Source: an uncultured Paracoccaceae bacterium
Lineage (GTDB): Bacteria; Pseudomonadota; Alphaproteobacteria; Rhodobacterales; Rhodobacteraceae
NCBI GenBank assembly: GCA_913061275.1
Contig: CAJXSR010000011.1
Span: forward strand, 1 to 64,000
Direction: 5' to 3'
Length of the DNA: 64,000 nucleotides
The translations under genes were made by a program, and so were the position numbers. Positions 45,163 through 63,617 of this stretch are shown piece by piece (within the stretch, counting starts at the first letter, position 1; every line of letters begins with the position of its first letter). The notes under the pieces were generated by a model. That model saw only the letters and a list, made by a program, of their open reading frames with translations, made no database searches and was not told where the DNA came from.

Positions 45163-46128
45163 CTAAAAATCGACCTCAAGTGCAATACCTTTCTTAACTG
45201 CCAATTCAACAACGGCAGAGGCTACTGCCAAATCTTGCAGGCCAACACCTGTGCCGTCAAACAATGTTACTTCATCGTCTGAACTGCGCCCTTTGTGGTC
45301 GCCATTTATCACCATGCCCAGTTCAATAATGTCAGCTTGCTGAAGTGAGCCGTCCGCAATCGCATGCTGGCACTCGCCGATTGTGATCGATTGGGCAATC
45401 TCATCGGTAAAGGTGGTGGCCTGCGCAACTAAAGCTGCCTCAACCTCTTGTTTGCCTTTGGTGTCGGTGCCCATACAGGCGATATGGGTTCCTGCCTTGA
45501 CTTGCGCGTCTTTTAGGATTGCATCAAAGCTGGATGTGATTGTGACAATAACATCTGCCTGTGCGCCCAATTCATCTAAACTAACGACCTGAAAAGGCAG
45601 GCCGATCTCGGCGGCTTTATTTGCAAGGGATGTTAGTTTTTCGGGTGTTCTGTTCCATGCCACGACACGGTCGAAATCACGTTGTTCTGCCACTGCCTGC
45701 AACTGAAACGTTGCCTGATGGCCAGCCCCCACAATACCCAGTACCTTAGCATCTTTTCGCGCCAGATGCGCAACAGAAACCGCAGCAGCAGCCGCAGTGC
45801 GCAGGGCAGTTAGTAAATTACCACCAACAACTGCGCGAATTTTACCAGTATCTGCATCAAACAACATTATCGCGGACTGGTGGTTGGTCAGTCCCTTGGC
45901 TGCGTTGCCTGGCCAATAGCCACCAGATTTCAAACCAAGATTAAGGGCGTCGCGGTCAAAGCCGGATTTAAAGCCGTATAAAGCATCTGCATGCCCAATG
46001 GCCTCTCTTATAACTGGGAAATTATAAGCGGTTCGTTTTGACATAGAGGCAAATACCTCTTCGACGGCTGTAAATGCACTTTCGCGTGTCATAAGGGCGG
46101 CGATTTCTTTTTCAGGAACTATAATCAT
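45163..46128 (-). CDS. bhcD: Iminosuccinate reductase BhcD
   Basis: Last enzyme of the beta-hydroxyaspartate cycle: reduces iminosuccinate to L-aspartate with NAD(P)H, regenerating the amino donor for BhcA. The roughly 321-residue protein is of the ornithine cyclodeaminase/mu-crystallin family, with GLKSGGYWPGNAAKGLTNHQ and the Rossmann motif GIVGAGHQATFQ. On fold alone it could be an ornithine cyclodeaminase; the bhcA-bhcB-bhcC neighbours decide the call. The ATG at 46128 follows AGAGG; a longer frame to 46185 would overlap bhcC and is unlikely. Confidence 0.92.
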   Translation of the reverse strand: MIIVPEKEIAALMTRESAFTAVEEVFASMSKRTAYNFPVIREAIGHADALYGFKSGFDRDALNLGLKSGGYWPGNAAKGLTNHQSAIMLFDADTGKIRAVVGGNLLTALRTAAAAAVSVAHLARKDAKVLGIVGAGHQATFQLQAVAEQRDFDRVVAWNRTPEKLTSLANKAAEIGLPFQVVSLDELGAQADVIVTITSSFDAILKDAQVKAGTHIACMGTDTKGKQEVEAALVAQATTFTDEIAQSITIGECQHAIADGSLQQADIIELGMVINGDHKGRSSDDEVTLFDGTGVGLQDLAVASAVVELAVKKGIALEVDF

Positions 46129-46151
46129 TATATGCCTCTTTTTATAACTGG

Positions 46152-47318
46152 TTAGTATGCTTTTCCGCGTGCAGATACAGGCCACAGGCTTTCGACTTTG
46201 CCACCCCGAACACCCACATACCAGTCGTGTACATTACAGGTTGGATCACAATGGCCCGGTACCAATCTTAATTTATCGTTTACCTTTAAAACGTGGTCTG
46301 GATCGCTAACAACACCGTGTTCATCAGAACACTTCATGTATTCAACGTTATCATTGCGTCCGAAAACTGTTGGCAGGCCACTGTCCACTGATTGCGCTTT
46401 CAAGCCTGCATCAACAACCGCTATATCGTTTTTTGCATGGCTCATAACGGAAGTCAGAATAAACAATGCGTTTTCCCATTCACCGTCATCTATGCGCTTG
46501 CCATCTTTATCTAAAATACGGCCATAATCTGCATCCATGAAAGCATATGAACCGCACTGCAATTCGTTGAACACGCCTGATGTACCCTCAAAGTAATACG
46601 AACCTGTGCCGCCTCCACCAACAATATCACACTCTAAACCAAGTGATTTCAATGCGTTGACCGCATGTTCGACCTGTTCAACGGCAATGTCTATTTTCGC
46701 TTTGCGATCATTGTATAGGTCAAGATGTTGCATAGCACCTTGGTAAGCTTGAATGCCTGCAAATTTCAAACCATCTGCGGCATCAATCAGTTTTGCGATA
46801 TTCACCACCTCTTGTGAGGTCGTCACACCGCAGCGACCAGCACCGCAATCTATTTCCACAAGACATTCCAATTCGGTTCCGTGTTTTTGGGCAGCAGCCG
46901 CAAGATCGGCCACGTTTCCAGGATCATCAACACAAACCAAAATCCGCGCACCTAATTTTGGCATACGTGCAAGGCGGTCGATTTTGGCAGGATCACGCAC
47001 CTGATTAGATACCATCACATCCTTGATGCCGCCACGCGCAAAAACTTCGGCTTCGGATACTTTTTGACAGCAAATACCAACCGAATGGCCCAAGGTTTCT
47101 TGTAACTTTGCTACATCTACGGATTTGTGCATTTTTCCGTGCGCACGGTGCCGTACACCCATATCACGTGCAAGATCACCCATTTTTTTGACGTTGCGTT
47201 CCAGTGCGTCCAGATCAAGGACTAAGCAAGGCGTTTGAATGTCGACTGCGTTCATGCCTGGTAAAGCAGGCACATCAAAACCTACTTCTAGGCCGTCTAA
47301 GTTTGTTTGTGTGCTCAT
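46152..47318 (-). CDS. bhcC: beta-Hydroxyaspartate aldolase BhcC
   Basis: Condenses glycine with glyoxylate to (2R,3S)-beta-hydroxyaspartate. The 388-residue protein is a fold-III PLP enzyme of the D-threonine aldolase/DSD1 family. The PLP-lysine region is RHRAHGKMHKS (about 56-66), GGGGTGSYYFEGTSG binds phosphate, and the C-terminal metal motif is VPGHCDPTCN. An isolated sequence would be called D-threonine or D-serine metabolism enzyme; the cluster context supports BhcC. Start ATG 47318 follows GGAGAAA. Confidence 0.93.
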   Translation of the reverse strand: MSTQTNLDGLEVGFDVPALPGMNAVDIQTPCLVLDLDALERNVKKMGDLARDMGVRHRAHGKMHKSVDVAKLQETLGHSVGICCQKVSEAEVFARGGIKDVMVSNQVRDPAKIDRLARMPKLGARILVCVDDPGNVADLAAAAQKHGTELECLVEIDCGAGRCGVTTSQEVVNIAKLIDAADGLKFAGIQAYQGAMQHLDLYNDRKAKIDIAVEQVEHAVNALKSLGLECDIVGGGGTGSYYFEGTSGVFNELQCGSYAFMDADYGRILDKDGKRIDDGEWENALFILTSVMSHAKNDIAVVDAGLKAQSVDSGLPTVFGRNDNVEYMKCSDEHGVVSDPDHVLKVNDKLRLVPGHCDPTCNVHDWYVGVRGGKVESLWPVSARGKAY

Positions 47319-47328
47319 TGGGTTTCTC

Positions 47329-48285
47329 CTATTTATGGTTCATCCACGGCAGCGTATCTAGGTCAACATTACCGCCGGTAATGATAACCCCAACCCGCTT
47401 GCCCGCGAAAGTTTCTTTGTTCTTCAAAATTGCTGCCAAGGGTACTGCACTGCTTGGCTCCATTACAATTTTCATCCGCTTCCAGATTAGCTTCATCGCC
47501 TCAATAATCTCATCCTCACTGGTGGTCAGAATATCCGTGACGTGATTGCTGACAAAATGCCATGTCAGTTCTTTTAGGGGTACTTTTAGACCATCGGCGA
47601 CGGTTACGGGTGCATCATCTGCAATGATATGGCCCGCTTTGAAACTGCGTGCGGCATCGTCGGCCTGTTCTGGCTCGGCTGCATATATTTTTATGTTTGG
47701 TGCAAGGTTGGATAGGGTCAGGCAGGTGCCGGAAATCATTCCGCCACCACCGATAGGGGCAATCACAGCATCTAACCCGTCAACCTGTCCGATCAATTCA
47801 TGTGAACAGGTACCTTGGCCAGCGATTACACGAGGATCGTTGTATGGATGTACAAATTCGGCACCGGTTTCCTTAATCACATCTGCAAAAACCGCTTCGC
47901 GGCTGGATGTGGATGGCTCACATTCAATAATTTTACCGCCATACCCTATTACCGCATCTTTTTTTGCTTGTGGTGCTGTGCGGGGCATTACGACTGTACA
48001 GGGGATACCGCGCCGCCCTGCCGCATAGGACAAGCTAAGCGCATGGTTGCCACTGGAATGGGTCGCAACACCTTTTTCCAGCATATCGTCAGGCAGGCCA
48101 AACACTGCGTTTGAGGCACCGCGCACTTTAAATGCGCCTGCCTTTTGGAAGTTCTCACATTTAAAAAACAGCTTTGCCCCTGTCAATTCATTCAGGAATG
48201 CTGACGTTAAAACGGGTGTGCGATGGATGTAGGGTTTGACCCGTACATGTGCTGTCAGCATATCGTCAATGGTGGGTATATACAT
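47329..48285 (-). CDS. bhcB: beta-Hydroxyaspartate dehydratase BhcB
   Basis: Removes water from beta-hydroxyaspartate to give iminosuccinate. The 318-residue protein is a fold-II PLP enzyme of the threonine/serine dehydratase family, with PLP-lysine Lys53 in KAGAFKVRGASNA, SSGNHA (77-82) and the GGGGM phosphate loop. It lacks a C-terminal ACT domain, as expected for a catabolic enzyme. ATG 48285 follows AAGGAA; the gap to bhcC is 10 bases. Confidence 0.93.
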   Translation of the reverse strand: MYIPTIDDMLTAHVRVKPYIHRTPVLTSAFLNELTGAKLFFKCENFQKAGAFKVRGASNAVFGLPDDMLEKGVATHSSGNHALSLSYAAGRRGIPCTVVMPRTAPQAKKDAVIGYGGKIIECEPSTSSREAVFADVIKETGAEFVHPYNDPRVIAGQGTCSHELIGQVDGLDAVIAPIGGGGMISGTCLTLSNLAPNIKIYAAEPEQADDAARSFKAGHIIADDAPVTVADGLKVPLKELTWHFVSNHVTDILTTSEDEIIEAMKLIWKRMKIVMEPSSAVPLAAILKNKETFAGKRVGVIITGGNVDLDTLPWMNHK

Positions 48286-48310
48286 AACATATTCCTTCTA
48301 TGATGTGCGG

Positions 48311-49474
48311 CTAAGATGTACGGTAGTGTTCTTGTGCTGCGGCAACACCTGAACCAAGCTGAACATCCAGCCCTAAATCAACCATGCACATTTCCGCCGT
48401 GGCGATACCTGATAGTGCCATCACATCCGTTAGACTGCCCAAGTGGCCGATGCGAAACACTTTACCTGCAACTTCACCTAAGCCAACCCCAAAGGCGACA
48501 TCATATTTATCGGCTGCATGGGTTACAATATCGGTGGCGTTAAAACCATCAGGTGTGCAAATAGCACTGACCGTATCGGAATATAAATCAGGTGATACAG
48601 CGCAAAGTTTTAGCCCCCACGCATCAACCGCTGCACGCACGCCACCCGCAATTCGATTGTGACGCGCAAAGACGTTTTCCAATCCTTCATTCAATAACAT
48701 CTCTGATGCCATTTTTAAACCGTTCAACAAACCAACCGCAGGCGTGTAAGGGTAGACGTTATTTGCATAGCCTTTGCCCATATCGCGGATGTCAAAGAAA
48801 GTGCGCGGCAAGGAAGCTGTTTCAAGTGTTGCCATTGCTTTGGGGCTAAAGCCCACGATCGCCAGACCGGCAGGCAGCATAAAGCCCTTTTGCGACCCAG
48901 TGATCGCAATATCAACGCCCCAGTCATCCATGCGAAAATCCATTGATCCGATAGAACTTACACCATCTACATATAACAACGCAGGGTGGTTTGCCGCATC
49001 CATTGCTTTGCGCACTGCTGCAATATTAGATAAAACACCCGTCGCGGTTTCATTATGAGTAGCCAAAACCACCTTGATTTGGTGGGATTTGTCTGCCGTT
49101 AGAATTTCTTCATAACGATCCGCTGGCACACCTTGACCCCAAGGGGTTTCAACGATTGTCATATCCAACCCATGTCGGGTGCACATATCAATCCAGCGGT
49201 GACTGAACATGCCATTACGGGCCGCCAAAACTTTGTCGCCTGCTGAAAGCGTGTTGGTCAGCGCGGTTTCCCAACCACCTGTACCTGTTGACGGAAACAC
49301 AAATATTTCTGCTGTTTTACTTTTCAGAACCTTCTTCACGCCATTCAGCGCGGGGTGCAAAATTTCGCCAAACAATGAGGATCGGTGATCCAATGTTGGC
49401 ATATCAACAGCTTTACGCAATATTTCGGGCATATTAGTCGGGCCTGGTATAAATACAGGATTTTGAAAGTACAT
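48311..49474 (-). CDS. bhcA: L-Aspartate-glyoxylate aminotransferase BhcA
   Basis: Opens the beta-hydroxyaspartate cycle: L-aspartate plus glyoxylate to oxaloacetate plus glycine. The 387-residue protein is a class V aminotransferase with IPGPTNMP at the start, TGTGGWE (64-70) and the PLP-lysine Lys196 in GSQKGFMLPAGL. This layout is shared with serine-glyoxylate aminotransferase, and the cluster decides the call. It is the first gene of bhcABCD, preceded by AAAGG and by the shared control region with bhcR. Confidence 0.93.
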   Translation of the reverse strand: MYFQNPVFIPGPTNMPEILRKAVDMPTLDHRSSLFGEILHPALNGVKKVLKSKTAEIFVFPSTGTGGWETALTNTLSAGDKVLAARNGMFSHRWIDMCTRHGLDMTIVETPWGQGVPADRYEEILTADKSHQIKVVLATHNETATGVLSNIAAVRKAMDAANHPALLYVDGVSSIGSMDFRMDDWGVDIAITGSQKGFMLPAGLAIVGFSPKAMATLETASLPRTFFDIRDMGKGYANNVYPYTPAVGLLNGLKMASEMLLNEGLENVFARHNRIAGGVRAAVDAWGLKLCAVSPDLYSDTVSAICTPDGFNATDIVTHAADKYDVAFGVGLGEVAGKVFRIGHLGSLTDVMALSGIATAEMCMVDLGLDVQLGSGVAAAQEHYRTS

Positions 49475-49561
49475 TTTATGAAACCTTTATAACGCTTAAT
49501 GTAACTTTATACCGTGCATCAGAAGGCGGCAATTTTTTCGAAATTTTAACTGACATTGGGG

Positions 49562-49634
49562 ATTTTATGGTAAAATTCTGCATTAACAATGCCTTATATT
49601 TTTTCACTAGATAAAATCATTTTTCACTATATAA
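49562..49634. promoter_or_regulatory. Candidate bhcA promoter and BhcR operators
   Basis: On the minus strand TTGTTA (49589-49584) and TAAAAT (49567-49562) with a 16-base spacer form a possible bhcA promoter. The inverted repeat ATTTTA-TGG-TAAAAT (49562-49576) covers its -10. Two near-identical 15-mers, TTTTTCACTAGATAA (49600-49614) and TTTTTCACTATATAA (49620-49634), repeat with a period of exactly 20 bases, about two helical turns. Both are plausible binding sites for BhcR. Confidence 0.45.
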
Positions 49635-49666
49635 TATATTTATGCGAGTAATGTGAGAAATATTTG

Positions 49667-50485
49667 ATGTCCGAGAAAATCAAAGCCCGTGGGCGCCCTA
49701 AGAATTTTTATGATACATCTGCCAAGAATACCATTCAATCGGTTGATCGGGCCTTTAATGTGTTGGAATTATTGGCTGCAAAAGGCGGGATGACCTTATC
49801 TGAAATTGCCACAGAGTTAGGCCAATCTGCGGCTACAATTTACCGCGTATTGACCACTCTTCAGGCCCGCGAGGCAGTTGAAACCGATGCGCATTCGCAA
49901 GTATGGAATATTGGCCCAGCGGCTTTTCAAATTGGTTATGCCTTTTTGCGTAGAAGCAGCGTTGTGGAACGCAGCCGCCCTATTATGCGTGAATTGATGG
50001 CGCAAACGGGCGAAACTGCCAATCTTGGGATCGAAAAATCTGGAATGGTTATGTTTGTCAGTCAAGTGGAAACTCATGAAACAATTCGTGCTTTTTTTCC
50101 ACCTGGCACACAATCACCACTTCATGCTTCTGGTATTGGTAAAGCATTGCTGGCACATTTTCCCCCTGCCAAAATGGCAGGTTTTTTGAAAGCGGGTGAG
50201 CTAGAGAAATTCACCGAAAACACCATTACAGACCCGCAAAAATTGCAACATGAAATGGAAACCATTCGCGCCCAAGGGTTTGCTTATGATGATGAGGAAA
50301 AGAATTTTGGAATGCGCTGTATTGCGGCACCAGTGCTGAATTATTTTGGCGAAGCTATTGCCGGTATTTCTGTTTCGGGGCCAACCCATCGAATGGCGCA
50401 AACCCGCATAGATGCGATCAGTGAATTGGTTAAAGATGCCGCTAAAACATTATCCTATAATCTGGGGGCGGTGCCAGAAAGTTAA
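49667..50485 (+). CDS. bhcR: IclR-family regulator BhcR
   Basis: Regulator of the beta-hydroxyaspartate cycle, divergent from bhcABCD. The roughly 272-residue protein has a winged HTH (about 20-80, MTLSEIATELGQSAATIYRVLTTLQ) and the IclR effector domain (about 90-265), where glyoxylate is the reported ligand of the characterised homologue. Start ATG 49667; an in-frame TTG lies just before. It is convergent with the 8-oxoguanine deaminase gene. Confidence 0.92.
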   Translation: MSEKIKARGRPKNFYDTSAKNTIQSVDRAFNVLELLAAKGGMTLSEIATELGQSAATIYRVLTTLQAREAVETDAHSQVWNIGPAAFQIGYAFLRRSSVVERSRPIMRELMAQTGETANLGIEKSGMVMFVSQVETHETIRAFFPPGTQSPLHASGIGKALLAHFPPAKMAGFLKAGELEKFTENTITDPQKLQHEMETIRAQGFAYDDEEKNFGMRCIAAPVLNYFGEAIAGISVSGPTHRMAQTRIDAISELVKDAAKTLSYNLGAVPES

Positions 50486-50500
50486 TGTGGTGCATAGGAA

Positions 50501-51838
50501 TTATGCCATAAATTTACGCACCAACCTGTTTTGATGTTCAATTACTTTACCCAGTTCTACACCTGTCAAATGACCAGCTGACACAACCGCTTTGCCTTCT
50601 ACATAAAGATCACGCACAGAATGCGGGCCAGTTAAAACGAGGGCTGCAACAGGGTCCCATGACCCAGCGGTTGCTATATGACTAGTCATATCCCAAACCG
50701 CAAAATCAGCCCGTTTACCCACTTCAAGTGATCCGCAATCATGGCGACCCAACACTTGCGCCCCCCCCAAAGTGGCAATTTCCAACGCTTCACGCGCGCT
50801 CATCGCATCTGCCCCGTTTTGCACGCGTTGCAATAGCAGCATTTGGCGGGCTTCATCCAATAAATGACCTGCATCATTTGATGCTGAACCATCTACACCA
50901 AGCCCGACTTTTACGCCTTCATCACGCATCTGGCGAACAGGGGCGATGCCAGAGCCAAGTCTGCAATTTGAGCAAGGACAATGGGCAACACCCGTGCCAG
51001 TGCTAGAGAAAAGCTTTATTTCTTTATCATCCAGTTTTACACAATGGGCATGCCATACATCTTCGCCGACCCAACCCAAATCTTCGGCATATTGGCCTGG
51101 AAGACATCCGAAATTTTCAAGTGAATAAGCAATATCTTCGTCATTTTCTGCTAGATGCGTGTGTAGCATAACACCTTTGTCGCGGGCCAGAATAGCACTG
51201 TCGCGCATCAGCTCACGGCTAACTGAAAAAGGTGAACATGGGGCAATCCCGATACGGATCATCGCACCCTCATTCGCATCATGATGGGCATCCACAACCC
51301 TGATACAATCGTTCAGTATATCAGCTTCATCTTCGCACATACTGTCTGGTGGTAGACCGCCATCACTTTCCCCAATGCTCATTGAGCCGCGTGTTGCGTG
51401 AAACCGTATACCGATGGTTTTGGCTGCATCAATGGTATCTTCTAACCGCACACCTTTTGGAAAATGATATAAGTGATCTGATGAAAGGGTGCACCCAGAC
51501 AAAGCCAGTTCAGCAAGGCCAACTTGGGCAGAGACAAACATCTCCTCTGGGCCGAAATTTTTCCAGATCGGATATAACGACTGCAACCAGCCAAACAATA
51601 AGGCATCTTGTCCACCTGGTACTGCGCGGGTCAGGGTTTGTGATAAATGGTGGTGAGTGTTCACCATACCTGGTGTCACAACACAGCCTGCGGCATTCAG
51701 TATTTCATCGCCACTTAGCCCATGCCCGATTGCCTGTATAACCCCATCTTCTACAAGAATATCGGCATGTGACAATTCACGGCGTGCCGTATCCATTGTT
51801 ACAATTACATTTGCATTTTTCACAACAATCGAAGTCAT
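50501..51838 (-). CDS. 8-Oxoguanine deaminase (amidohydrolase superfamily)
   Basis: Deaminates 8-oxoguanine to urate. The 445-residue protein has the amidohydrolase metal residues THHH (61-64), HTHLAENDED and DGSASND. It shows the group traits VPGGQDALLFGWLQSLYPIW and HCPCSNCRLGSG, which I recall from characterised 8-oxoguanine deaminases of the atrazine-chlorohydrolase-like branch. Guanine or another aminopurine is an alternative substrate. It is the last gene of a minus-strand run puuE/uraD-allE-allA, which fits a product that is urate. Confidence 0.82.
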   Translation of the reverse strand: MTSIVVKNANVIVTMDTARRELSHADILVEDGVIQAIGHGLSGDEILNAAGCVVTPGMVNTHHHLSQTLTRAVPGGQDALLFGWLQSLYPIWKNFGPEEMFVSAQVGLAELALSGCTLSSDHLYHFPKGVRLEDTIDAAKTIGIRFHATRGSMSIGESDGGLPPDSMCEDEADILNDCIRVVDAHHDANEGAMIRIGIAPCSPFSVSRELMRDSAILARDKGVMLHTHLAENDEDIAYSLENFGCLPGQYAEDLGWVGEDVWHAHCVKLDDKEIKLFSSTGTGVAHCPCSNCRLGSGIAPVRQMRDEGVKVGLGVDGSASNDAGHLLDEARQMLLLQRVQNGADAMSAREALEIATLGGAQVLGRHDCGSLEVGKRADFAVWDMTSHIATAGSWDPVAALVLTGPHSVRDLYVEGKAVVSAGHLTGVELGKVIEHQNRLVRKFMA

Positions 51839-51870
51839 GGCGTTTCCAGTTCATATAAAGCAAAAGGCAG

Positions 51871-52359
51871 TTAGCCCTGTTGAATTTGATAAGCGTTTTT
51901 AAAGGGGTGTTCTTGTAAATTATCACCAGTACCGATCCTGTCGACAACTGCGAAAAGCCCAGGCTCATGCAAAGGCGTCAGCACACCGTGCCATGTGCCT
52001 TTGTGCAAATTAACCGCCTGACCTGCCTTACTGATAAAGGCTTGCGGGTTAACTGGTACACCGTTTTGATCGTCTGCTACCACAATCATAAAAGAATGAT
52101 GACTCATCGGGATAAATGCCTGACTGCCCAAGGGATGGCGTTCAACCAGTTTCAGGTCATATGGAAAGTTGCAAGTTTTTGACTTAAATACACTGATACC
52201 AGCGCGACCATCGGTAAAATCCAAATCTGCCAGATCATCAAAGCGATTGCAGTCACCTTGGTTAATCGCAATCGGGGAATTGCCTGAGCAATCTAATACA
52301 TTCCCGTAGGGGGCAAAATCAGTGGCTGTCAGGGGGCGTGTGATGATAATATTGCTCAC
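51871..52359 (-). CDS. allA: Ureidoglycolate lyase
   Basis: Splits (S)-ureidoglycolate into glyoxylate and urea, the last step of ureide breakdown. The roughly 162-residue cupin-like protein has ITRPLTATDFAPYGNVLD at the start, VERHPLGSQAFIPM and LHKGTWHGVLTPL, all AllA signatures. The likely start is GTG at 52359, which overlaps the allE stop as GTGA. A longer frame reaches back to 52473 but would run through allE. Its product glyoxylate is the substrate of the adjacent bhc cluster. Confidence 0.92.
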   Translation of the reverse strand: MSNIIITRPLTATDFAPYGNVLDCSGNSPIAINQGDCNRFDDLADLDFTDGRAGISVFKSKTCNFPYDLKLVERHPLGSQAFIPMSHHSFMIVVADDQNGVPVNPQAFISKAGQAVNLHKGTWHGVLTPLHEPGLFAVVDRIGTGDNLQEHPFKNAYQIQQG

Positions 52360-53207
52360 TTGGCGCCACCCAAATCGAATGACATGTGGCGGTTTACATC
52401 TTTGTACAACAGGTAACGAAACGGTTCTGGCCCTGCGGCTACACATGCTTGTGGGCAAAAGGCGCGTAGCCACATATAATCACCAGCTTCAACTTCAACC
52501 CAGTCTTGGTTTAGGTGGTAAACCGCTTTGCCCTGCAATACATATAGCCCGTGTTCCATCACGTGGGTTTCAGCAAACGGAATAGATCCGCCCGGTTGAA
52601 AAGTCACGATTGTAACGTGCATATCGTGACGTAAATCCGTAGGGTCTACAAACCTTGTGGTGGCCCATGTGCCATTGGTATCTGGCATTTCAGTTGGGGG
52701 AACATCTTGATCTGAAGTCACAAATGCGCTTGGCGCATCTACCCCGTCTACAGCTTGATACCGTTTTCTGATCCAGTGAAAACTTACATTTTGGTCTGTT
52801 GTATTTCGTAATTTCCACTGACATTTGGGGGGTAGATATGCATAGCCGCCAGAGCTTAATGTATGGGTTTCACCCCCAAATGTTAATTCTAACACCCCAT
52901 CCACTACAAACAGTACAGTTTGGGCAGTTGGGTCTGTATCAGGGGTTTCGCTGCCACCATTTGGTGCAACTTCGGCGATGTAATGTGAAAATGTCTCGGC
53001 AAATCCGGTTAAAGGCCGTGCAATAACCCAAAATCGCGCACCAACCCAGTTAGGCAAGTAACTGGTAACAATATCGGTCATTACCCCTTTGGGAATGACC
53101 GCATAAGCGTCTTTAAGAACTGCCCGATCGGTCATAATCTGGCTTTGTGCTGGCAAGCCGCCAGTGGGTGTATAATATTTTGCGCTCTTATGGGGCAGGT
53201 CTTTCAT
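52356..53207 (-). CDS. allE: (S)-Ureidoglycine aminohydrolase
   Basis: Manganese-dependent bicupin that converts (S)-ureidoglycine to (S)-ureidoglycolate and ammonia. About 283 residues, two cupin domains (first around VLFVVDGVLELTFGGETHTLSSGGYAYLPP, second around ETHVMEHGLYVLQGKAVYHL with metal ligands Glu/His). The ATG at 53207 is chosen because AAGGAA stands 8 bases ahead. The ATG at 53222 overlaps the puuE stop as ATGA but has no ribosome binding site, so either could be used. Confidence 0.92.
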   Translation of the reverse strand: MKDLPHKSAKYYTPTGGLPAQSQIMTDRAVLKDAYAVIPKGVMTDIVTSYLPNWVGARFWVIARPLTGFAETFSHYIAEVAPNGGSETPDTDPTAQTVLFVVDGVLELTFGGETHTLSSGGYAYLPPKCQWKLRNTTDQNVSFHWIRKRYQAVDGVDAPSAFVTSDQDVPPTEMPDTNGTWATTRFVDPTDLRHDMHVTIVTFQPGGSIPFAETHVMEHGLYVLQGKAVYHLNQDWVEVEAGDYMWLRAFCPQACVAAGPEPFRYLLYKDVNRHMSFDLGGAK

Positions 53208-53218
53208 GGGTATTTCCT

Positions 53219-54637
53219 TCATGGCAAAATCTGTGTCAGCCGCAGCAATGCAATACGTTCAACTTGCTGGCATGCAGTGGTAAATTCCGTGTTTGGATCA
53301 TTATCAATACGGGTTATGAACGCTTGCAAAATCTGATCTTTGGTCAACCCTTTCACTGCAATGATAAAGGGAAATCCGAATTTTTCTGTGTAGCGTGTGT
53401 TCAATTCCTGAAATTCGCGACGTTGTGCATCGGTTAAGGCGTCTAATCCTGCGCCGGCTTGCTCGGATGTGGAACTGTTAGTTAATTGCTTTGCATCTGC
53501 TAGCTTGCCTGCCAGATCGGGATGCGCGCGTAAAACTGCTAACCTTTGTGCGTCTGTTGCACGCCTAAAGATTCGGCAAAGGGCGGAATGTAGGCCAATG
53601 GCAGTATCATGTGCAGCCCCCAATTCACCTTCCCAAGCGGCCTGCGGTATCCATGTGGAATGCTCAAAAATATCACCATAAGTTTGTACAAACTCTTGTT
53701 GAGGCATTTCAGATGGTATTGCTGAACTGGCAGGTGCCGCGTGGTGTTCATGCCAATGTTGCGCAATTTCTATGCGTTTCGCGAACCAGACATCCGCATG
53801 GCTTTGCGCATATTTCATGAAACGCTTGAGTGATTGAATGCGACCGGGCCGACCTATTAGGCGGCAATGCAGGCCGATTGACAGCATCTTGGGCGCACCC
53901 TCAACGCCTTCTTCATATAAAGCGTCAAAGCTGTCTTTTAGGTAGTTATAAAACTGGTCGCCTGCATTAAACCCCTGAGGCGATGCAAAGCGCATGTCAT
54001 TTGTATCAAGTGTATAGGGGATAACCAGTTGGTTTTTTCCATCATGGTGATGCCAATAGGGTAGGTCATCGGCGTAACTGTCAGAAACATAGGTAAAGTT
54101 ACCTTGTTCTGTGACCAAATCAACTGTGTTGGCTGAACAACGCCCCGTGTACCAACCTGTTGGTGGCGTTCCTGTTACTTCTGTATGAATGCGTATGGCA
54201 TCTTCCATATCGCGGCGTTCATCCGTTTTTGTATGGTCTTTATAGTCAATCCATTTAAGCCCGTGACTGGCAATTTCCCAGTCTGAATCTTGCATTGCAG
54301 CAACTTGGGCGGGTGAGCGTTCAAGGGCTGTGGCCACACCGTAAACGGTTGCAGGTATCGCCATTTTTGTGAACAATCTGTGCAGCCGCCAAAAGCCAGC
54401 GCGCGCACCATATTCATATATCGATTCCATATTCCAATGGCGCTGCTCAGGCCAAGGTGCGGCCCCAACGATTTCAGATAAGAACGCCTCTGAACTTGCA
54501 TCACCATGTAAAACGCAGTTTTCACCACCTTCTTCATAGTTGATTACAAATTGCACAGCAATTTTAGCCCCGTTTGGCCAAATTACTTTCGGGGTGTTTT
54601 CACCGTGGCCATGCATATCTCTTGGGTAGCGGTTCAC
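53219..54637 (-). CDS. puuE: Fused allantoinase (PuuE) and OHCU decarboxylase (UraD)
   Basis: Two consecutive steps in one 472-residue protein. Residues about 1-300 are a polysaccharide-deacetylase-fold allantoinase (PuuE): MNRYPRDMHGHGENTPKVIWPNGA, ASHGLKWIDY and HCRLIGRPGRIQ. Residues about 308-472 are a UraD domain with the segments FEHSTWIPQAAWE, LRAHPDLAGKLA, TSEQAGAGLDAL and KFGFPFIIAVKG, which hold the catalytic His and the substrate-binding Glu/Arg. Together they would take OHCU to allantoin to allantoate. First gene of the minus-strand ureide operon; a 142-base gap with no strong promoter match separates it from divergent uraH. Confidence 0.93.
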   Translation of the reverse strand: MNRYPRDMHGHGENTPKVIWPNGAKIAVQFVINYEEGGENCVLHGDASSEAFLSEIVGAAPWPEQRHWNMESIYEYGARAGFWRLHRLFTKMAIPATVYGVATALERSPAQVAAMQDSDWEIASHGLKWIDYKDHTKTDERRDMEDAIRIHTEVTGTPPTGWYTGRCSANTVDLVTEQGNFTYVSDSYADDLPYWHHHDGKNQLVIPYTLDTNDMRFASPQGFNAGDQFYNYLKDSFDALYEEGVEGAPKMLSIGLHCRLIGRPGRIQSLKRFMKYAQSHADVWFAKRIEIAQHWHEHHAAPASSAIPSEMPQQEFVQTYGDIFEHSTWIPQAAWEGELGAAHDTAIGLHSALCRIFRRATDAQRLAVLRAHPDLAGKLADAKQLTNSSTSEQAGAGLDALTDAQRREFQELNTRYTEKFGFPFIIAVKGLTKDQILQAFITRIDNDPNTEFTTACQQVERIALLRLTQILP

Positions 54638-54779
54638 GAAAACGTTCCTTTCTCATTGATTTATCTAAATATCAGAATATTAAGCATTGATTATCCTATA
54701 ATATTTGAAAGTCTTTTTTGTATTCTTAGATATAATGTAACTCTTTATTGCGCGAAACAATGGGCAAAAGGAATGTAGT

Positions 54780-55145
54780 ATGACAACGACTAAAGGTTAT
54801 TTAACAACACATGTACTGGATACGGCACTGGGCTTGCCTGCAAGTGGCATGCATATTGATTTGTTTTATCTAGACGGTGACAGACATATATTCATCAGAA
54901 GCTTGGTGACAAATGATGATGGGCGCACGGATAGCCCGATTTTGCCAAGTGATGAGTTTAGGCAGGGCGTTTATGAGCTTGTGTTTAAGGCGGGCGATTA
55001 TTTGCAAGAAAATGCCCCTGCGCAAGATACGCCATTGTTTCTGTCTGATATTCCAATCCGCTTTGGCATGAATGATTTGGATGCTCATTATCACGTGCCC
55101 CTTTTGTTATCGCCATTTGGCTACTCTACATATCGGGGAAGCTAG
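54780..55145 (+). CDS. uraH: 5-Hydroxyisourate hydrolase
   Basis: Transthyretin-like enzyme that opens 5-hydroxyisourate to OHCU. The 121-residue protein carries the family ends: LTTHVLDTALGLPA with catalytic His11, and the C-terminal YRGS. ATG 54780 is preceded by AAAAGGAA. A TATAAT at 54731-54736 may be its -10; there is no good -35, as is common for LysR-dependent promoters. It is convergent with a LysR gene that ends 8 bases beyond. Confidence 0.95.
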   Translation: MTTTKGYLTTHVLDTALGLPASGMHIDLFYLDGDRHIFIRSLVTNDDGRTDSPILPSDEFRQGVYELVFKAGDYLQENAPAQDTPLFLSDIPIRFGMNDLDAHYHVPLLLSPFGYSTYRGS

Positions 55146-55153
55146 GAAACACG

Positions 55154-56068
55154 TTATCTTGCGCGTTCTTCTAAGGCTGTTTTGCAATGCGCCACCATAT
55201 AATCAATAAATAGGCGCACCTTTGGGTCTTGGTGTTTTTTATGGGGATATAAACAGCCCAGAAAAACAGGGCTGGGTGGGGTTTCTTCAGATACAACGAT
55301 CAAAGCACCAGATTTTATATGCTTAGACACCTCAAATACTGGTTTATTTACAATGCCATGCCCATTTAAGGCCCAATCGGTTAATACCCCACCATCATCA
55401 GATTCAAAAGGGCCAGTAACGGCAAATCTTTTGGGTCCATCGGGTGTTGTTAAATGCCATTGATATTCTTTAGTTCCCGGGAAACGCAACGTCAGGCAAT
55501 CGTGTTTGTCATTTATTAAATCCTGCCCTGATTTCGGTAATCCTTTGCGTTCCAAGTATTCTGGGGCTGCACATAAAACGCGCGGGCATTCTGCCACAGT
55601 GCGAATACGGTGGTTTGAATCCTCTGGCACACCCAGAAAAAAAGCGATGTCTAACCCTTCTTCGGTCAGATCAATGCGGCGATCTGACAGGCGCAAGCGC
55701 ACGTCAATTTCTGGATATTGCCGTTTAAAATCTGGCACTGCGGGCGCTATAAACCTTCGGCCCACACCTAATGGGGCAGCCACAAAAATTGACCCACGTG
55801 GGTTTTGTGTATTCTCGGCTACTGTTGCTTCGGCTTCATCGATAGCGCGCAGTATTTTATTAGCGCCTTCATAAAACAACCGCCCTTGTTCGGTTGCTTG
55901 CAAACTTCGGGTTGTTCGGTTGAACAAACGCACCCCCAAATGATTTTCCAATTCAGCGATTCTACTGGAGGCCACTGCAGGTGATACTCTTTGATCGCGC
56001 GCAGCCGCAGACATATTGCCCAATTCATATATGCGCACAAAAACTTTCAGCTGATTGACATAGGACAT
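55154..56068 (-). CDS. LysR-family regulator in the urate cluster
   Basis: A 304-residue LTTR of the AaeR/CrgA-like branch: HTH about 1-60 (GNMSAAARDQRVSPAVASSRIAELENHLG), then the effector domain with FVAAPLGVGRRFIAPAVPDFKRQYPEI. It is flanked by uraH and puuD and divergent from puuD with a 150-base gap, so control of urate catabolism is likely (inference). I found no perfect palindrome in that gap. Confidence 0.88.
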   Translation of the reverse strand: MSYVNQLKVFVRIYELGNMSAAARDQRVSPAVASSRIAELENHLGVRLFNRTTRSLQATEQGRLFYEGANKILRAIDEAEATVAENTQNPRGSIFVAAPLGVGRRFIAPAVPDFKRQYPEIDVRLRLSDRRIDLTEEGLDIAFFLGVPEDSNHRIRTVAECPRVLCAAPEYLERKGLPKSGQDLINDKHDCLTLRFPGTKEYQWHLTTPDGPKRFAVTGPFESDDGGVLTDWALNGHGIVNKPVFEVSKHIKSGALIVVSEETPPSPVFLGCLYPHKKHQDPKVRLFIDYMVAHCKTALEERAR

Positions 56069-56218
56069 GTTGGGAATCCTTACTTCTTACCGTACTACTT
56101 CTTTACCTCATTAACGTACAATCCTATTATCACATTAATTTTGAAAGTGTTCTGCAATTATTTAAATTTACCATTGAAAAAAATTAACGCACTATACGCT
56201 AAACTAAGGGGAAAACTC

Positions 56219-57454
56219 ATGTATGATATGGCTGTACTGTTCGAATGGCTGGAATTTGCAGTGCGTTGGCTGCATGTGATTACCGCCATTGCATGGATTG
56301 GGTCGTCGTTTTATTTTATCGCCCTTGATTTGGGCCTGCGCAAAACGCCAAACCTTCCCAAGGGGGCGCATGGTGAAGAATGGCAAGTGCATGGTGGCGG
56401 GTTTTACCATATTCAGAAATATCTGGTGGCACCTGCAGCGCTACCAGAACACCTGACGTGGTTTAAATGGGAAAGCTATGTAACATGGCTATCGGGTTTT
56501 GCCATGATGTTTGTGGTCTATTACTTAGGGGCTGATTTGTATCTGATTGACCCCGATGTTGCCGATATTTCACCTGTGCAAGCCGTGATGATTTCTATTG
56601 CATCTTTAGGCGCGGTTTGGGTGATTTATGACCAAATTTGTAAATCAAAGTTTGGCGATGACAATACCCGCCTGATGATCTTTTTGTACATTTTACTTGT
56701 GGCTTTGGCATATGGTTATACGCAAGTATTCAGTGGGCGTGCTACAATGCTGCACTTAGGGGCAATCACGGCTACGGTTATGTCGGGGAATGTGTTTTTT
56801 ATTATCATGCCAAACCAACGCATTGTTGTGGCAGATTTACAGGCTGGGCGCACGCCTGACCCTAAGTACGGTAAAATTGCAAAACAGCGTTCGACACATA
56901 ATAATTATCTGACATTACCAGTTATCTTTTTGATGCTGTCCACGCATTACCCTCTTGCCTTTGCAACGCAATACAACTGGGTGATTGCCAGCCTTGTATT
57001 TTTGATGGGCGTAACCATTAGGCATTATTTTAACAGCATTCATGCACGTTCAGGCAACCCGCACTGGACATGGATTGTGACCACCTTATTGTTTATTGCT
57101 GCAATGTGGTTGTCATCAATTCAGCCTGAACCCACAGAAGAGGCGCGCGCAGAGAGTTTAACACTAACACAACAGAAGTTCGCAAATGCGGATGGGTTTG
57201 CGCAAGTACATGATATTGTATTGGGGCGGTGTTCGATGTGCCATGCACAAGAGCCGTTTTATGAAGGTATCCGTTGGGCACCAAAAGGCGTGTTGCTGGA
57301 AACAGAAAAACAGATAGCAAGCCGCGCAAAACAGATATTCCTACATTCGGGTATCACCCGTGCCATGCCGCCTGCGAATGTCAGTTTCATGGAAGAAGCT
57401 GAACGGCGCATTATTGCAAAGTGGTATCGCTCTGTCGAAAAACCATTGTTTTAG
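56219..57454 (+). CDS. puuD: Membrane urate hydroxylase PuuD with cytochrome c domain
   Basis: Membrane-bound urate oxidising enzyme that makes 5-hydroxyisourate, passing electrons to the respiratory chain. The roughly 411-residue protein has about eight helices (residues about 10-300) with PuuD marks WLEFAVRWLHVITAIAWIGSSFYF and GGGFYHIQKYLVAP. A C-terminal cytochrome c domain follows with CSMCH (about 338-342) and Met ligand candidates in AMPPANVSFM. ATG 56219 follows AGGGG. A soluble uricase (UOX/HpxO) is not present here, so PuuD is the entry enzyme. Confidence 0.93.
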   Translation: MYDMAVLFEWLEFAVRWLHVITAIAWIGSSFYFIALDLGLRKTPNLPKGAHGEEWQVHGGGFYHIQKYLVAPAALPEHLTWFKWESYVTWLSGFAMMFVVYYLGADLYLIDPDVADISPVQAVMISIASLGAVWVIYDQICKSKFGDDNTRLMIFLYILLVALAYGYTQVFSGRATMLHLGAITATVMSGNVFFIIMPNQRIVVADLQAGRTPDPKYGKIAKQRSTHNNYLTLPVIFLMLSTHYPLAFATQYNWVIASLVFLMGVTIRHYFNSIHARSGNPHWTWIVTTLLFIAAMWLSSIQPEPTEEARAESLTLTQQKFANADGFAQVHDIVLGRCSMCHAQEPFYEGIRWAPKGVLLETEKQIASRAKQIFLHSGITRAMPPANVSFMEEAERRIIAKWYRSVEKPLF

Positions 57455-57456
57455 GG

Positions 57457-58371
57457 TTAGGTAGAAGGGGCTTGGCTAGCAGCTATAATCCAGTCACGAA
57501 CCGACTTAGCATCTTGTGACAACTCGGCATTCTCTGACCAGACAAGATAGAACTCTTTGCCACTGTTCCATTCCCATGGACCGACTTGCGTCAGTAGATT
57601 TGCATCAATCATACGTCTTGTCACGTGTTCCCATCCTAACGAAATACCTTGCCCGGCCATGACTGCATGCAACACAAGTGCGTAGTCATTTAGGCGCAAG
57701 CCCTGGCCGTTTTCATGGTACTTAAAGCCAAAATTCTGAAAGAAATCGGCCCAAGTGGGACTGTAACGATGGGGTTCTTCCAGATTTATTAATTGGGCTG
57801 ACATCAAGTCCTCTATTTTGTCGATGGCGGGATGGGAATTCTTCCATGCAGGGCTGGCAACTGCCATAACTGATTCTTTGGCAATGGATGTTGTTTCATA
57901 CCCATCCCATTTACCATCGCCACGCCAAACGGCGAGGCTTATATCCTCTTGGACTAGATCGAGATATTTGTCGGTAGTCTGAACCCGAAGGTCAATATTG
58001 GGATGTTGATCGTGAAAGTCCTGCAAGCGGGGGATCATCCAATAATTGGCGAAAGCGGTTGTGACAGATAGGGTAACATGACGGCCCTTATGTTGCCCTT
58101 GCAGATATTTTACAGTTCGTAATATACGGTCAAACCCTTGATATACATCATGTCTTAACATTTCACCCGCGCTAGTCAGTGTTATAATACGGTGGCGACG
58201 GTGAAACAGCTTTGTGCCGATCGCATGTTCTAGTTTGCGCACAGATTGGCTGATGGCGGGTTGGCTTACACCCATTTCTTTGGCTGCATTTGTGAAAGAC
58301 CCAAGACGTGCGGAAGCTTCAAAGGCTGAAAGGTGGTTAAGGGATTCTATGGATTTCAGAAGTTCTAGCAT
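57457..58371 (-). CDS. LysR-family regulator (GcvA-like) divergent from mttB
   Basis: A 304-residue LTTR of the GcvA type: HLSAFEASARLGSFTNAAKEMGVSQPAISQSVRKLEHAIG is the HTH, and WADFFQNFGF with a GQGISLGWE loop marks the effector domain. It ends 2 bases from puuD (convergent) and is divergent from the methyltransferase gene. A CTAAC-N5-GTTAG inverted repeat between the two starts may be its site. GcvA-like regulators often respond to amino acids such as glycine; the ligand here is unknown. Confidence 0.88.
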   Translation of the reverse strand: MLELLKSIESLNHLSAFEASARLGSFTNAAKEMGVSQPAISQSVRKLEHAIGTKLFHRRHRIITLTSAGEMLRHDVYQGFDRILRTVKYLQGQHKGRHVTLSVTTAFANYWMIPRLQDFHDQHPNIDLRVQTTDKYLDLVQEDISLAVWRGDGKWDGYETTSIAKESVMAVASPAWKNSHPAIDKIEDLMSAQLINLEEPHRYSPTWADFFQNFGFKYHENGQGLRLNDYALVLHAVMAGQGISLGWEHVTRRMIDANLLTQVGPWEWNSGKEFYLVWSENAELSQDAKSVRDWIIAASQAPST

Positions 58372-58434
58372 AACTACAGTTTATGCAAAACGATAGAATT
58401 TACCAGCGTTACAAGCGAATATTTTTTACTTACT

Positions 58435-58449
58435 CTAACTTAATGTTAG
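58435..58449. promoter_or_regulatory. Inverted repeat between LysR and mttB
   Basis: CTAAC-TTAAT-GTTAG, a 5-bp inverted repeat with 5-base spacer and LysR-type T-N11-A spacing. Its right arm runs into the AGGAGGGGG ribosome binding site of mttB, so binding there would block transcription or initiation of mttB. Its centre is 71 bases ahead of the LysR start. Confidence 0.45.
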
Positions 58450-58459
58450 GAGGGGGTTT

Positions 58460-60000: not shown

Positions 60001-60040
60001 CCTCTCGTATGCATGTGGGTATTACACCGCGAAATATAAG

Positions 60041-60059
60041 GTTTACTTTACAGGTAAAC
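60041..60059. promoter_or_regulatory. Small inverted repeat upstream of kbl
   Basis: GTTTAC-N7-GTAAAC in the 115-130 base gap between mttB and kbl. It has 6-base perfect arms and could be an operator. The regulator is unknown; the nearby GbdR-like and LysR genes are candidates. Confidence 0.3.
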
Positions 60060-60130
60060 GATGTGTTCTCATTAACAATGCGTTAGGGATGACGTTACGT
60101 ATACCAGTTTAAGTAATGAAAGTTTACAAA

Positions 60131-62361: not shown

Positions 62362-62376
62362 AGGGGTACTGAATGA

Positions 62377-62481
62377 CTAAGAAGACATTACCAAGCTAAC
62401 AAATTTGTAGGCCAGATGTATGATGCCGAAATTCAAGGGGCACCGCTTTATGATGCGAACGGGGCTAATATGCGGGCTTAA
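62377..62481 (+). pseudogene. Possible 3' remnant of a GcvT-like or dimethylglycine dehydrogenase gene
   Basis: In the gap after tdh an open stretch of 34 codons follows a TGA without a usable start of its own. It ends ...YDAEIQGAPLYDANGANMRA and then TAA. The final xPLYDxxGxxMRA pattern resembles, in my recollection, the extreme C-terminus of GcvT-domain demethylases and dimethylglycine or sarcosine dehydrogenases. A remnant of such a gene would fit the mttB and GbdR-like neighbours. It could also be chance; the stretch is short. Confidence 0.4.
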
Positions 62482-63494: not shown

Positions 63495-63617
63495 TGCCAG
63501 CTCCTAACACAAATTAGTACAAGATACATTTGAAAACAATGAACCAAAATGTGTGATCCTTTTGATTAATGTTTTATATAACCTTATTATTCCTCAACCA
63601 AGTGTCGTGTGACAGAA

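What the first reader, a model, noticed from the sequence alone, without database searches (positions are those of the whole stretch)
45163..57454. Purine-to-glyoxylate pathway next to the complete beta-hydroxyaspartate cycle
bhcABCD with bhcR lies beside allA, allE, fused puuE-uraD, uraH, puuD and an 8-oxoguanine deaminase. AllA releases glyoxylate, which is the input of the cycle. The 12-kb block could therefore recover nitrogen from purines and turn both glyoxylate carbons into oxaloacetate without CO2 loss. I know the two modules separately; I do not recall their physical linkage being described as one unit.
Basis: partly seen in the sequence, partly recalled or inferred. Interest (0 to 1): 0.85.

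Follow-up and report, generated by a model that had tools for sequence, protein, structure and literature searches.

The report
Purine breakdown linked to glyoxylate assimilation
In many marine Rhodobacteraceae, the genes that break purines down to glyoxylate sit beside the genes of a carbon-saving cycle that turns glyoxylate into oxaloacetate, which suggests that purines, and not only algal glycolate, feed that cycle.

Summary
In detail: bhcABCD and bhcR (all over NCBIfam cut-offs) abut a puuE-uraD/allE/allA/8-oxoguanine-deaminase operon, with uraH and puuD beyond.

The linkage is not peculiar to this genome. Of 123 bhc clusters fetched from the same GTDB family, 48 carry at least one purine gene within about 10 kb (47 of 115 with all four bhc genes); about 0.6 is expected by chance. 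Glycolate oxidase genes occur in 1 of 123. Several gene orders occur, often with bhc inside the purine cluster. In other families BhcC and PuuE are within 5 kb in 2 of 10 genomes.

The "single unit" idea needs trimming. The bhcR-bhcA palindrome was not found upstream of the purine genes, so coupling is probably through glyoxylate. Xanthine dehydrogenase lies 34 kb away, no standard allantoate-cleaving enzyme was found, and no urease, so AllA's urea may be lost.

The logic is that of the E. coli all-gcl cluster with the beta-hydroxyaspartate cycle in place of the glycerate pathway; Gcl was not detected in 295 genomes. New variant of a known kind. Unexplained: a lone bhcC-like gene beside allE or allA where BhcA is missing.

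The parts
45163..46128 (-). bhcD, iminosuccinate reductase (ORF reaches 46185; likely start ATG 46128)
   Evidence: NF045643, 569.7 bits, cut-off 500; start
46152..47318 (-). bhcC, 3-hydroxy-D-aspartate aldolase
   Evidence: NF045642, 738.8 bits, cut-off 690; best solved relative 6qkb
47329..48285 (-). bhcB, beta-hydroxyaspartate dehydratase
   Evidence: NF045641, 599.6 bits, cut-off 550
48311..49474 (-). bhcA, L-aspartate--glyoxylate aminotransferase
   Evidence: NF045640, 749.2 bits, cut-off 650
49612..49626 (+). candidate BhcR site in the bhcR-bhcA intergenic region (TGAAA-N5-TTTCA type, 1 mismatch)
   Evidence: 7 such sites in the window, 4.63 expected by chance, so weak alone; motif conserved upstream of bhcA in other loci. 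Not proof of binding
49664..50485 (+). bhcR, IclR-family regulator, divergent from bhcA
   Evidence: NF045644, 408.8 bits, cut-off 350
50501..51838 (-). 8-oxoguanine deaminase (8-oxoguanine to urate); 15 bases lie between its end and that of bhcR
   Evidence: NF006055, 668 bits, cut-off 532; solved relatives 3hpa, 7ww2
51871..52359 (-). allA, ureidoglycolate lyase (glyoxylate + urea); ORF reaches 52473, likely start GTG 52359
   Evidence: PF04115 181.3 bits; below NCBIfam cut-offs; solved relatives 2bdr, 1xsq; start
52356..53222 (-). allE, (S)-ureidoglycine aminohydrolase; also passes the model named bifunctional allantoicase/(S)-ureidoglycine aminohydrolase
   Evidence: NF008376 501.9 (338), NF040771 492.4 (350)
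53219..54637 (-). puuE-uraD fusion: allantoinase plus OHCU decarboxylase
   Evidence: TIGR03212 522.3 (424.6), TIGR03164 203.2 (96.25)
54780..55145 (+). uraH, 5-hydroxyisourate hydrolase
   Evidence: TIGR02962 121.5 bits, cut-off 87.45
55154..56068 (-). LysR-family regulator found between uraH and puuD also in relatives
   Evidence: LysR models below specific cut-offs; synteny
55991..57454 (+). puuD, membrane urate hydroxylase (true start probably downstream of 55991)
   Evidence: PF06181 Urate_ox_N 452.4 bits at residues 82-375

Best explanation
The locus is a purine-to-oxaloacetate catabolic neighbourhood of two separately regulated modules joined by one metabolite. Module 1 turns urate (from 8-oxoguanine deaminase here, and from xanthine dehydrogenase elsewhere on the contig) into 5-hydroxyisourate (PuuD), OHCU (UraH), allantoin (UraD), allantoate (PuuE), ureidoglycolate (AllE plus an allantoate-cleaving step not assigned here) and then glyoxylate plus urea (AllA). 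Module 2, the beta-hydroxyaspartate cycle, turns two glyoxylate into one oxaloacetate: BhcA transaminates glyoxylate to glycine, BhcC condenses glycine with a second glyoxylate, BhcB forms iminosuccinate, and BhcD reduces it to aspartate, which re-enters BhcA and leaves oxaloacetate. The glyoxylate made by AllA would itself switch on bhcABCD through BhcR. Shown: gene content, linkage beyond chance, linkage in several gene orders, and a palindrome found at bhc but not at the purine genes. Inferred: that flux from purines really runs through the cycle, and that BhcR senses it.
For: Gene identities. Linkage: of 123 bhc clusters (bhcC plus at least two of bhcA, bhcB, bhcD), 48 have at least one of allA/allE/puuE-uraD/uraH/puuD in the fetched stretch, 39 of them one other than allE; 47 of 115 among clusters with all four bhc genes; 37 of 91 among stretches of 19 kb or more; about 0.6 expected if one purine cluster lay at random in a 3.8-Mb genome. 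Glycolate oxidase genes: 1 of 123. Commonest order (19 loci): allE> bhcR< bhcABCD> allA< puuE-uraD< uraH> lysR< puuD>, so bhc lies inside the purine cluster; a xanthine permease lies in 29 of 48 linked and 1 of 75 unlinked stretches. Several other orders, including the window's own and that of L270 from another family. On a BhcA-D tree the linked state needs at least 19 changes, against a shuffled mean of 32.2 (0 of 500 as low): inherited, but broken or remade repeatedly. In Paracoccus, glyoxylate weakens BhcR binding in vitro and raises bhc promoter activity through BhcR in vivo (PMC11323563, section 5 read). Gcl was not found in 295 genomes.
Against: 75 of 123 bhc clusters show no purine gene in the fetched stretch (54 of them at least 19 kb long), so linkage is not required. 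PuuE is nearly universal (268 of 295 over cut-off) while BhcC is over cut-off in 126 of 295, so purine degradation does not need the cycle; G120, of the same genus, has the purine cluster without bhc. A GlcD-like gene also occurs in this genome (458.1 bits, under the cut-off of 567.9), so glycolate is a possible input. The palindrome is not shared with purine promoters. Allantoate cleavage is unassigned and no urease was found. No expression or growth data.
Confidence: 0.72

Rival explanations
1. The cycle serves mainly glycolate (or ethylene glycol) in this lineage. Its place beside purine genes was inherited from an ancestor and kept by inertia; purine-derived glyoxylate is a minor input.
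For: Published physiology seen here concerns glycolate and ethylene glycol (PMC11323563, section 5 read; PMC11166783, passages). A GlcD-like gene, none over the curated cut-off, is in 262 of 295 genomes. Linkage is phylogenetically clustered (19 changes against 32.2 in shuffles). In one genome of another family glcDEF directly precede bhcC (L265).
Against: glcD/E/F lie in only 1 of 123 bhc clusters of the family, purine genes in 48. Linkage occurs in different gene orders and in other families; the window's order differs from those of its neighbours L198 and L208 on the joined tree and of the close BhcC relative L036.
Confidence: 0.2
2. The purine genes are a nitrogen-scavenging module, and the cycle is there to detoxify the glyoxylate by-product rather than to feed central carbon.
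For: Glyoxylate is reactive (general knowledge). Purine clusters without bhc are common (PuuE over cut-off in 268, BhcC in 126 of 295 genomes). A xanthine permease accompanies the linked loci (29 of 48).
Against: Urea made by AllA cannot be used through urease in this genome if the lack of a match is real, which lowers the nitrogen value of the route here. A four-enzyme assimilation cycle is an elaborate means of detoxification (inference).
Confidence: 0.15
3. The adjacency is chance.
For: No positive evidence; 75 of 123 clusters are unlinked in the stretches seen.
Against: 48 of 123 observed against about 0.6 expected; BhcC-PuuE linkage in three GTDB families.
Confidence: 0.02

Closest known systems
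Escherichia coli all-gcl (allantoin/glyoxylate) cluster: allA-allR-gcl-hyi-glxR...allB...glxK, allE-allC-allD
   Same: A ureide pathway ending in glyoxylate is clustered with a glyoxylate-assimilation pathway and an IclR-family regulator (gene order seen; BhcR is placed as sister to an IclR/AllR clade in PMC11323563).
   Different: Assimilation is by the CO2-releasing glycerate pathway (Gcl). [quoted passage not shown] Gcl was not found in 295 genomes of this family.
Beta-hydroxyaspartate cycle of Paracoccus denitrificans (bhcRABCD)
   Same: Same five genes, with bhcR divergent from bhcA; all five over NCBIfam cut-offs.
   Different: Described as a route for glycolate and ethylene glycol; purines are named only as one possible source of glyoxylate (PMC11323563 introduction, passage). 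Here bhc adjoins purine genes.
Rubrobacter xylanophilus purine cluster (Rxyl_2836-2854)
   Same: Purine degradation genes followed by a glyoxylate-to-glycerate unit (PMC4016543, passages).
   Different: Uses the glycerate route and another proposed allantoate step; no bhc genes in the passages seen.

Membership tests
Beta-hydroxyaspartate cycle | bhcA, bhcB, bhcC and bhcD all present and over curated cut-offs | tested here: met
Beta-hydroxyaspartate cycle | IclR-family BhcR divergent from bhcA, with a palindromic site between them | tested here: met
   (window site with 1 mismatch); motif with at most 1 mismatch in 40 of 47 linked and 52 of 69 unlinked loci
Beta-hydroxyaspartate cycle | glyoxylate-dependent induction and bhc-dependent growth | not testable with these tools
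   needs strains and growth tests
Urate-to-glyoxylate (ureide) pathway | urate oxidation to allantoate: PuuD, UraH, UraD, PuuE | tested here: met
Urate-to-glyoxylate (ureide) pathway | allantoate cleavage by AllC or allantoicase | tested here: inconclusive
   AllC best 214.5 of 597.75 bits, allantoicase none in this genome; AllE passes the model NF040771 named bifunctional allantoicase/(S)-ureidoglycine aminohydrolase
Urate-to-glyoxylate (ureide) pathway | glyoxylate release by AllA | tested here: inconclusive
   Pfam family and solved relatives met, NCBIfam cut-offs not reached
Urate-to-glyoxylate (ureide) pathway | urease to free the urea nitrogen | tested here: not met
   no PF00449 match in this draft genome; 5 of 5 other genomes tested have one. 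Urea carboxylase/allophanate hydrolase not tested
E. coli-type all-gcl cluster | glyoxylate carboligase (Gcl) | tested here: not met
   0 of 295 genomes at E <= 1e-150, E. coli control positive; at most four candidates were scored in the genomes shown
E. coli-type all-gcl cluster | one glyoxylate-sensing regulator with sites at both modules | tested here: not met
   palindrome with at most 1 mismatch in 0 of 36 upstream regions of allE, 0 of 32 puuE-uraD, 0 of 33 uraH, 0 of 26 lysR, 0 of 12 puuD, 0 of 33 allA, 0 of 24 xanthine permease, 0 of 4 guanine deaminase; only this one motif was tested

The most novel reading that the evidence does not exclude
The cycle was assembled inside a purine cluster, around a BhcC-type aldolase that already worked there on the glyoxylate from AllA. 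In five genomes that lack BhcA over cut-off, a lone bhcC-family gene sits where bhc sits elsewhere: directly behind allE (L240, L243, L249 with 8 to 29 bases between match ends; L239) or beside allA (L244), with the lysine and His-Cys-Asp motifs kept. Glycolate use would then be a later application. The alternative, loss of the other bhc genes with bhcC kept for a separate purine-linked task, would also be new.
Probability: 0.13. Interest if true: 0.82.

Novelty: new variant of a known kind. Interest (0 to 1): 0.62.

Why it matters
The beta-hydroxyaspartate cycle is discussed, in the papers seen here, as a route for algal glycolate and ethylene glycol. In this family its genomic neighbours are far more often purine genes (48 of 123) than glycolate oxidase genes (1 of 123). 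If flux follows, dissolved purines and their ureides would be a carbon source that enters central metabolism without carbon loss at the glyoxylate step, and the cycle would fill the slot that glyoxylate carboligase fills in E. coli. It can be tested in named relatives with the linked arrangement, for example Neptunicoccus sediminis CY02 (L111), Yoonia sediminilitoris DSM 29955 (L055) and Actibacterium sp. MT2.3-13A (L073).

Tried and rejected
Chance adjacency: rejected. A shared BhcR regulon: tested by footprinting of one motif and not supported. Glycolate oxidase as the usual neighbour of bhc: tested, 1 of 123. A complete pathway within the 12-kb block: rejected. Gcl as the alternative to bhc within the family: not the case, since Gcl was found in none of 295 genomes. 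A motif shared among purine promoters: a TTTC-N11-GAAA pair in 11 of 47 distinct sequences upstream of uraH was not tested against shuffles and is left as a remark. A BhcC tree to decide whether lone bhcC genes are ancestral or leftovers: unresolved, long branches and many open forks. Literature: ten searches gave listings in which I saw no paper on the linkage; four papers were opened, one section and passages of PMC11323563 and passages only of PMC12214560, PMC4016543 and PMC11166783. The 2019 Nature paper on the cycle is not held, so absence from print is not shown.

Limits of the counts. The 295 genomes are nearly one per genus of one GTDB family, 'drawn evenly' by the tool. The 128 fetched over-cut-off loci (from 125 genomes) are all that one search lists over the cut-off apart from the window's own; of the weaker matches only 11 were fetched. 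'bhc cluster' means bhcC plus at least two of bhcA, bhcB, bhcD; 8 of the 123 lack one of the four in the stretch seen, partly because contigs end. 32 of the 123 stretches are shorter than 19 kb. The 77 clusters among the 80 named loci (28 linked, 21 of them by a gene other than allE) partly repeat the same species and are not added to the 123. The joined tree used 112 rows with all four proteins, the window included; 96 had a state, and 16 unlinked loci under 19 kb were left without one. One search used 47 linked and 69 unlinked loci with a usable bhcA, and 40 first-order resamplings as control.

Full report
Check of the observation. ORFs on both strands were listed and scanned against NCBIfam and Pfam. 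The block holds bhcD, bhcC, bhcB and bhcA on the minus strand, bhcR divergent from bhcA, then on the minus strand a tight run puuE-uraD, allE, allA and 8-oxoguanine deaminase, then uraH (+), a LysR gene (-) and puuD (+). puuE-uraD and allE overlap by 4 bases, and allE and allA by 4 if allA starts at GTG 52359. 15 bases lie between the ends of bhcR and of the 8-oxoguanine deaminase gene, which face each other. All five bhc genes pass curated cut-offs; AllA is assigned by Pfam and by solved relatives only. The window is the first 64 kb of contig 11 of a 3.39-Mb draft, 99.99% complete. The nearest named BhcC relatives are Amylibacter metagenome bins at 90-94% identity (L035-L037); that the organism lies near Amylibacter is an inference.

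Is the linkage general? In 295 genomes of the same GTDB family (294 genera), BhcC passes its cut-off in 126 and PuuE in 268. I fetched all 128 other over-cut-off bhcC loci, up to 20 kb each, and mapped the window's genes onto them. 123 are bhc clusters (bhcC plus at least two of bhcA, bhcB, bhcD); 115 of these show all four. 39 of 123 carry at least one of allA, puuE-uraD, uraH, puuD; 9 more carry allE only; 75 show none, 54 of them in stretches of at least 19 kb. With all four bhc genes the count is 47 of 115; in stretches of 19 kb or more it is 37 of 91. If one purine cluster lay at random in a 3.8-Mb genome, about 0.6 of the 123 stretches would touch it. Beyond the fetched stretches, coordinates put PuuE about 10 kb (G244), 14 kb (G100) and 14 kb (G255) from BhcC; G100 had been counted as unlinked, the other two as linked by allE only. 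For most other unlinked genomes whose PuuE place was listed, PuuE lies on another contig or far away.

Which neighbour is typical? With E. coli GlcD, GlcE and GlcF as queries, glycolate oxidase genes are in 1 of 123 clusters, and that one has no purine gene. A xanthine permease lies in 29 of 48 linked and 1 of 75 unlinked stretches, guanine deaminase in 4 and 1, and xdhB in 2 and 2. In L077 (Candidatus Halocynthiibacter alkanivorans) ABC transporter genes and guanine deaminase lie upstream of allE, and a nucleobase permease of the xanthine type between bhcD and allA. The commonest order, in 19 of the fetched loci, is allE> bhcR< bhcABCD> allA< puuE-uraD< uraH> lysR< puuD>: bhc lies inside the purine cluster. 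Over all mapped loci, named ones included, 47 have allE> facing bhcR<, with 13 to 134 bases between the matches in 42 and 433 to 465 in five. The window's 8-oxoguanine deaminase beside bhcR is not typical: no match of 45% identity or more lies in the 128 loci.

Different arrangements. Other orders place the whole purine block downstream of bhcD with allE in it (for example L242), upstream of bhcR (L122, L162), or, as in the window, upstream of bhcR in the reverse order with 8-oxoguanine deaminase next to bhcR. On a FastTree tree of joined BhcA-D proteins (112 rows, 96 with a state) linkage needs at least 19 changes; 500 label shuffles gave a mean of 32.2 and a minimum of 22. So linkage is inherited in clades but has been lost or remade repeatedly; the tree cannot tell which. 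On that tree the window stands beside L198 and L208, which have the other orientation (branch support not examined). On BhcC alone, with 40 randomly drawn cluster rows that did not include L198 or L208, its nearest row was L227, a 16.9-kb stretch without purine genes. The close relative L036 (92% BhcC identity) is linked in yet another order, with the purine block behind bhcD. So the window's own order looks like a rearrangement that kept the linkage (inference). G120, of the same genus, has 8-oxoguanine deaminase, puuD, uraH, puuE-uraD, allE, allA, a xanthine permease and xdhAB in one cluster and no BhcC match.

Outside the family. Of 385 genomes sampled across the class, 13 have BhcC over the cut-off, 10 of them in other families, three of these ten from one genus. 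PuuE lies within about 5 kb of BhcC in 2 of these 10, G669 and G636, which belong to different families. Only three of the ten loci were fetched. In G669 the order is xdhB xdhA uraH puuE-uraD allE allA 8-oxoguanine-deaminase followed by convergent bhcD-C-B-A and bhcR (L270): the same purine operon end meets bhc in another family. G321 has a bhc cluster without purine genes in 16 kb (L264). In G671 glcDEF directly precede bhcC (L265), so the neighbour of bhc may tell which glyoxylate source matters (inference). A Rhizobiaceae metagenome bin (L039) also has bhcABCD with allE and puuE-uraD on one contig; binning errors are possible there.

Regulation. The bhcR-bhcA intergenic regions share a palindrome TGAAA-N5-TTTCA: at most one mismatch in 40 of 47 linked loci (resampled mean 1.4, maximum 5) and 52 of 69 unlinked loci (mean 2.5, maximum 7). 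Upstream of purine genes it was found in 0 of 36 (allE), 24 (xanthine permease), 32 (puuE-uraD), 33 (uraH), 26 (lysR), 12 (puuD), 33 (allA) and 4 (guanine deaminase), where resampling expects at most 0.6. In the window, 7 sites with one mismatch occur in 64 kb (4.63 expected; 15 of 100 shuffles reach 7); one at 49612 lies between bhcR and bhcA, one at 49464 overlaps the start of bhcA, and none lies in 49627-64000. That the palindrome is the BhcR site is an inference: the paper reports a potential palindromic site upstream of bhcA in Paracoccus, but its letters were not seen. In Paracoccus, glyoxylate weakens BhcR binding in vitro while BhcR acts as an activator in vivo, and BhcR is a sister group of an IclR/AllR clade (PMC11323563, section 5 read). 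The best reading is therefore two regulons coupled by glyoxylate, unlike E. coli, where AllR binds at both modules (same paper).

Completeness of the route in this genome. Xanthine dehydrogenase is present on the same contig at 91164-93422 (1193.2 bits, cut-off 849.5). AllC is not found over its cut-off (best 214.5 of 597.75), and allantoicase was not found here or in 13 of the 14 other genomes tested. AllE passes a model named bifunctional allantoicase/(S)-ureidoglycine aminohydrolase, which might fill the gap; I did not see the evidence behind that name. Urease alpha was not found in this genome but in 5 of 5 others, so the urea of AllA may be lost here; a draft of 56 contigs leaves some doubt, and the urea carboxylase route was not tested. 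A GlcD-like gene (458.1 bits, below cut-off) exists at C9, so glycolate remains a possible second source.

Lone bhcC genes. 14 fetched loci hold a BhcC-family gene without at least two of bhcA, bhcB, bhcD (15, less L121, where the contig ends at bhcC and bhcD is present; one of the 14, L248, has bhcB). Five have purine genes: L239, L240, L243, L249 (directly behind allE) and L244 (beside allA). Between the matches of allE and bhcC lie 29 bases in L240, 20 in L243, 8 in L249 and 153 in L239. Their genomes have no BhcA over the cut-off (best 253.5 to 276.7 bits of 650). The RxHxKxHK stretch and the His-Cys-Asp motif are conserved in all five; that these hold the PLP lysine and the metal site is recalled from D-threonine aldolases. 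Identity to the window's BhcC is 55 to 78%. Their place on the tree is not resolved. Nine lone genes have no purine gene in the stretch.

Novelty. Purines and allantoin are named in print as a general source of glyoxylate (PMC11323563 introduction, passage). None of the listings of ten full-text searches showed a paper on the physical linkage; most listed papers were not opened, and subscription papers, among them the founding 2019 paper, were not available. The logic, a ureide pathway clustered with a glyoxylate-assimilation pathway and an IclR-family regulator, is that of the E. coli all-gcl cluster. I therefore rate it a new variant of a known kind: the beta-hydroxyaspartate cycle in the place of the glycerate pathway, in a family where Gcl was not detected (0 of 295).

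Noticed in passing
58460-60000 (+): An MttB-superfamily methyltransferase gene is split over two overlapping frames (58460-59386 and 59374-60000; profile positions 4-297 and 299-500), a frameshift or an assembly error; kbl, tdh and a GbdR-like regulator follow.
   Followed up: partly
36511-37764 (+): A DUF4147/MOFRL protein (glycerate 2-kinase type by recall) beside a LysR gene, about 7 kb from bhcD, hints at a second route to phosphoglycerate.
   Followed up: no
L239, L240, L243, L244, L249: Lone bhcC-family genes in purine clusters of genomes without BhcA over cut-off, in three cases 8 to 29 bases behind the allE match.
   Followed up: partly
window genome G000 (whole): No urease alpha subunit found, although 5 of 5 other genomes tested, including the same genus (G120), have one.
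   Followed up: partly
L265:3508-9055: In a genome of another family glcD, glcE and glcF directly precede bhcC: a glycolate-side counterpart of the purine linkage.
   Followed up: no
L084:7108-12222, L096:825-5231: Two Octadecabacter loci have allE, bhcR, bhcB, bhcC and bhcD but no bhcA match between bhcR and bhcB.
   Followed up: no
puuE-uraH intergenic, window 54638-54779 and relatives: A TTTC-N11-GAAA inverted pair occurs in 11 of 47 distinct sequences upstream of uraH, perhaps a site of the neighbouring LysR regulator; not tested against shuffles.
   Followed up: no
28823-30274 (-): A 483-residue protein with many MORN repeats (PF02493, 290.6 bits).
   Followed up: no
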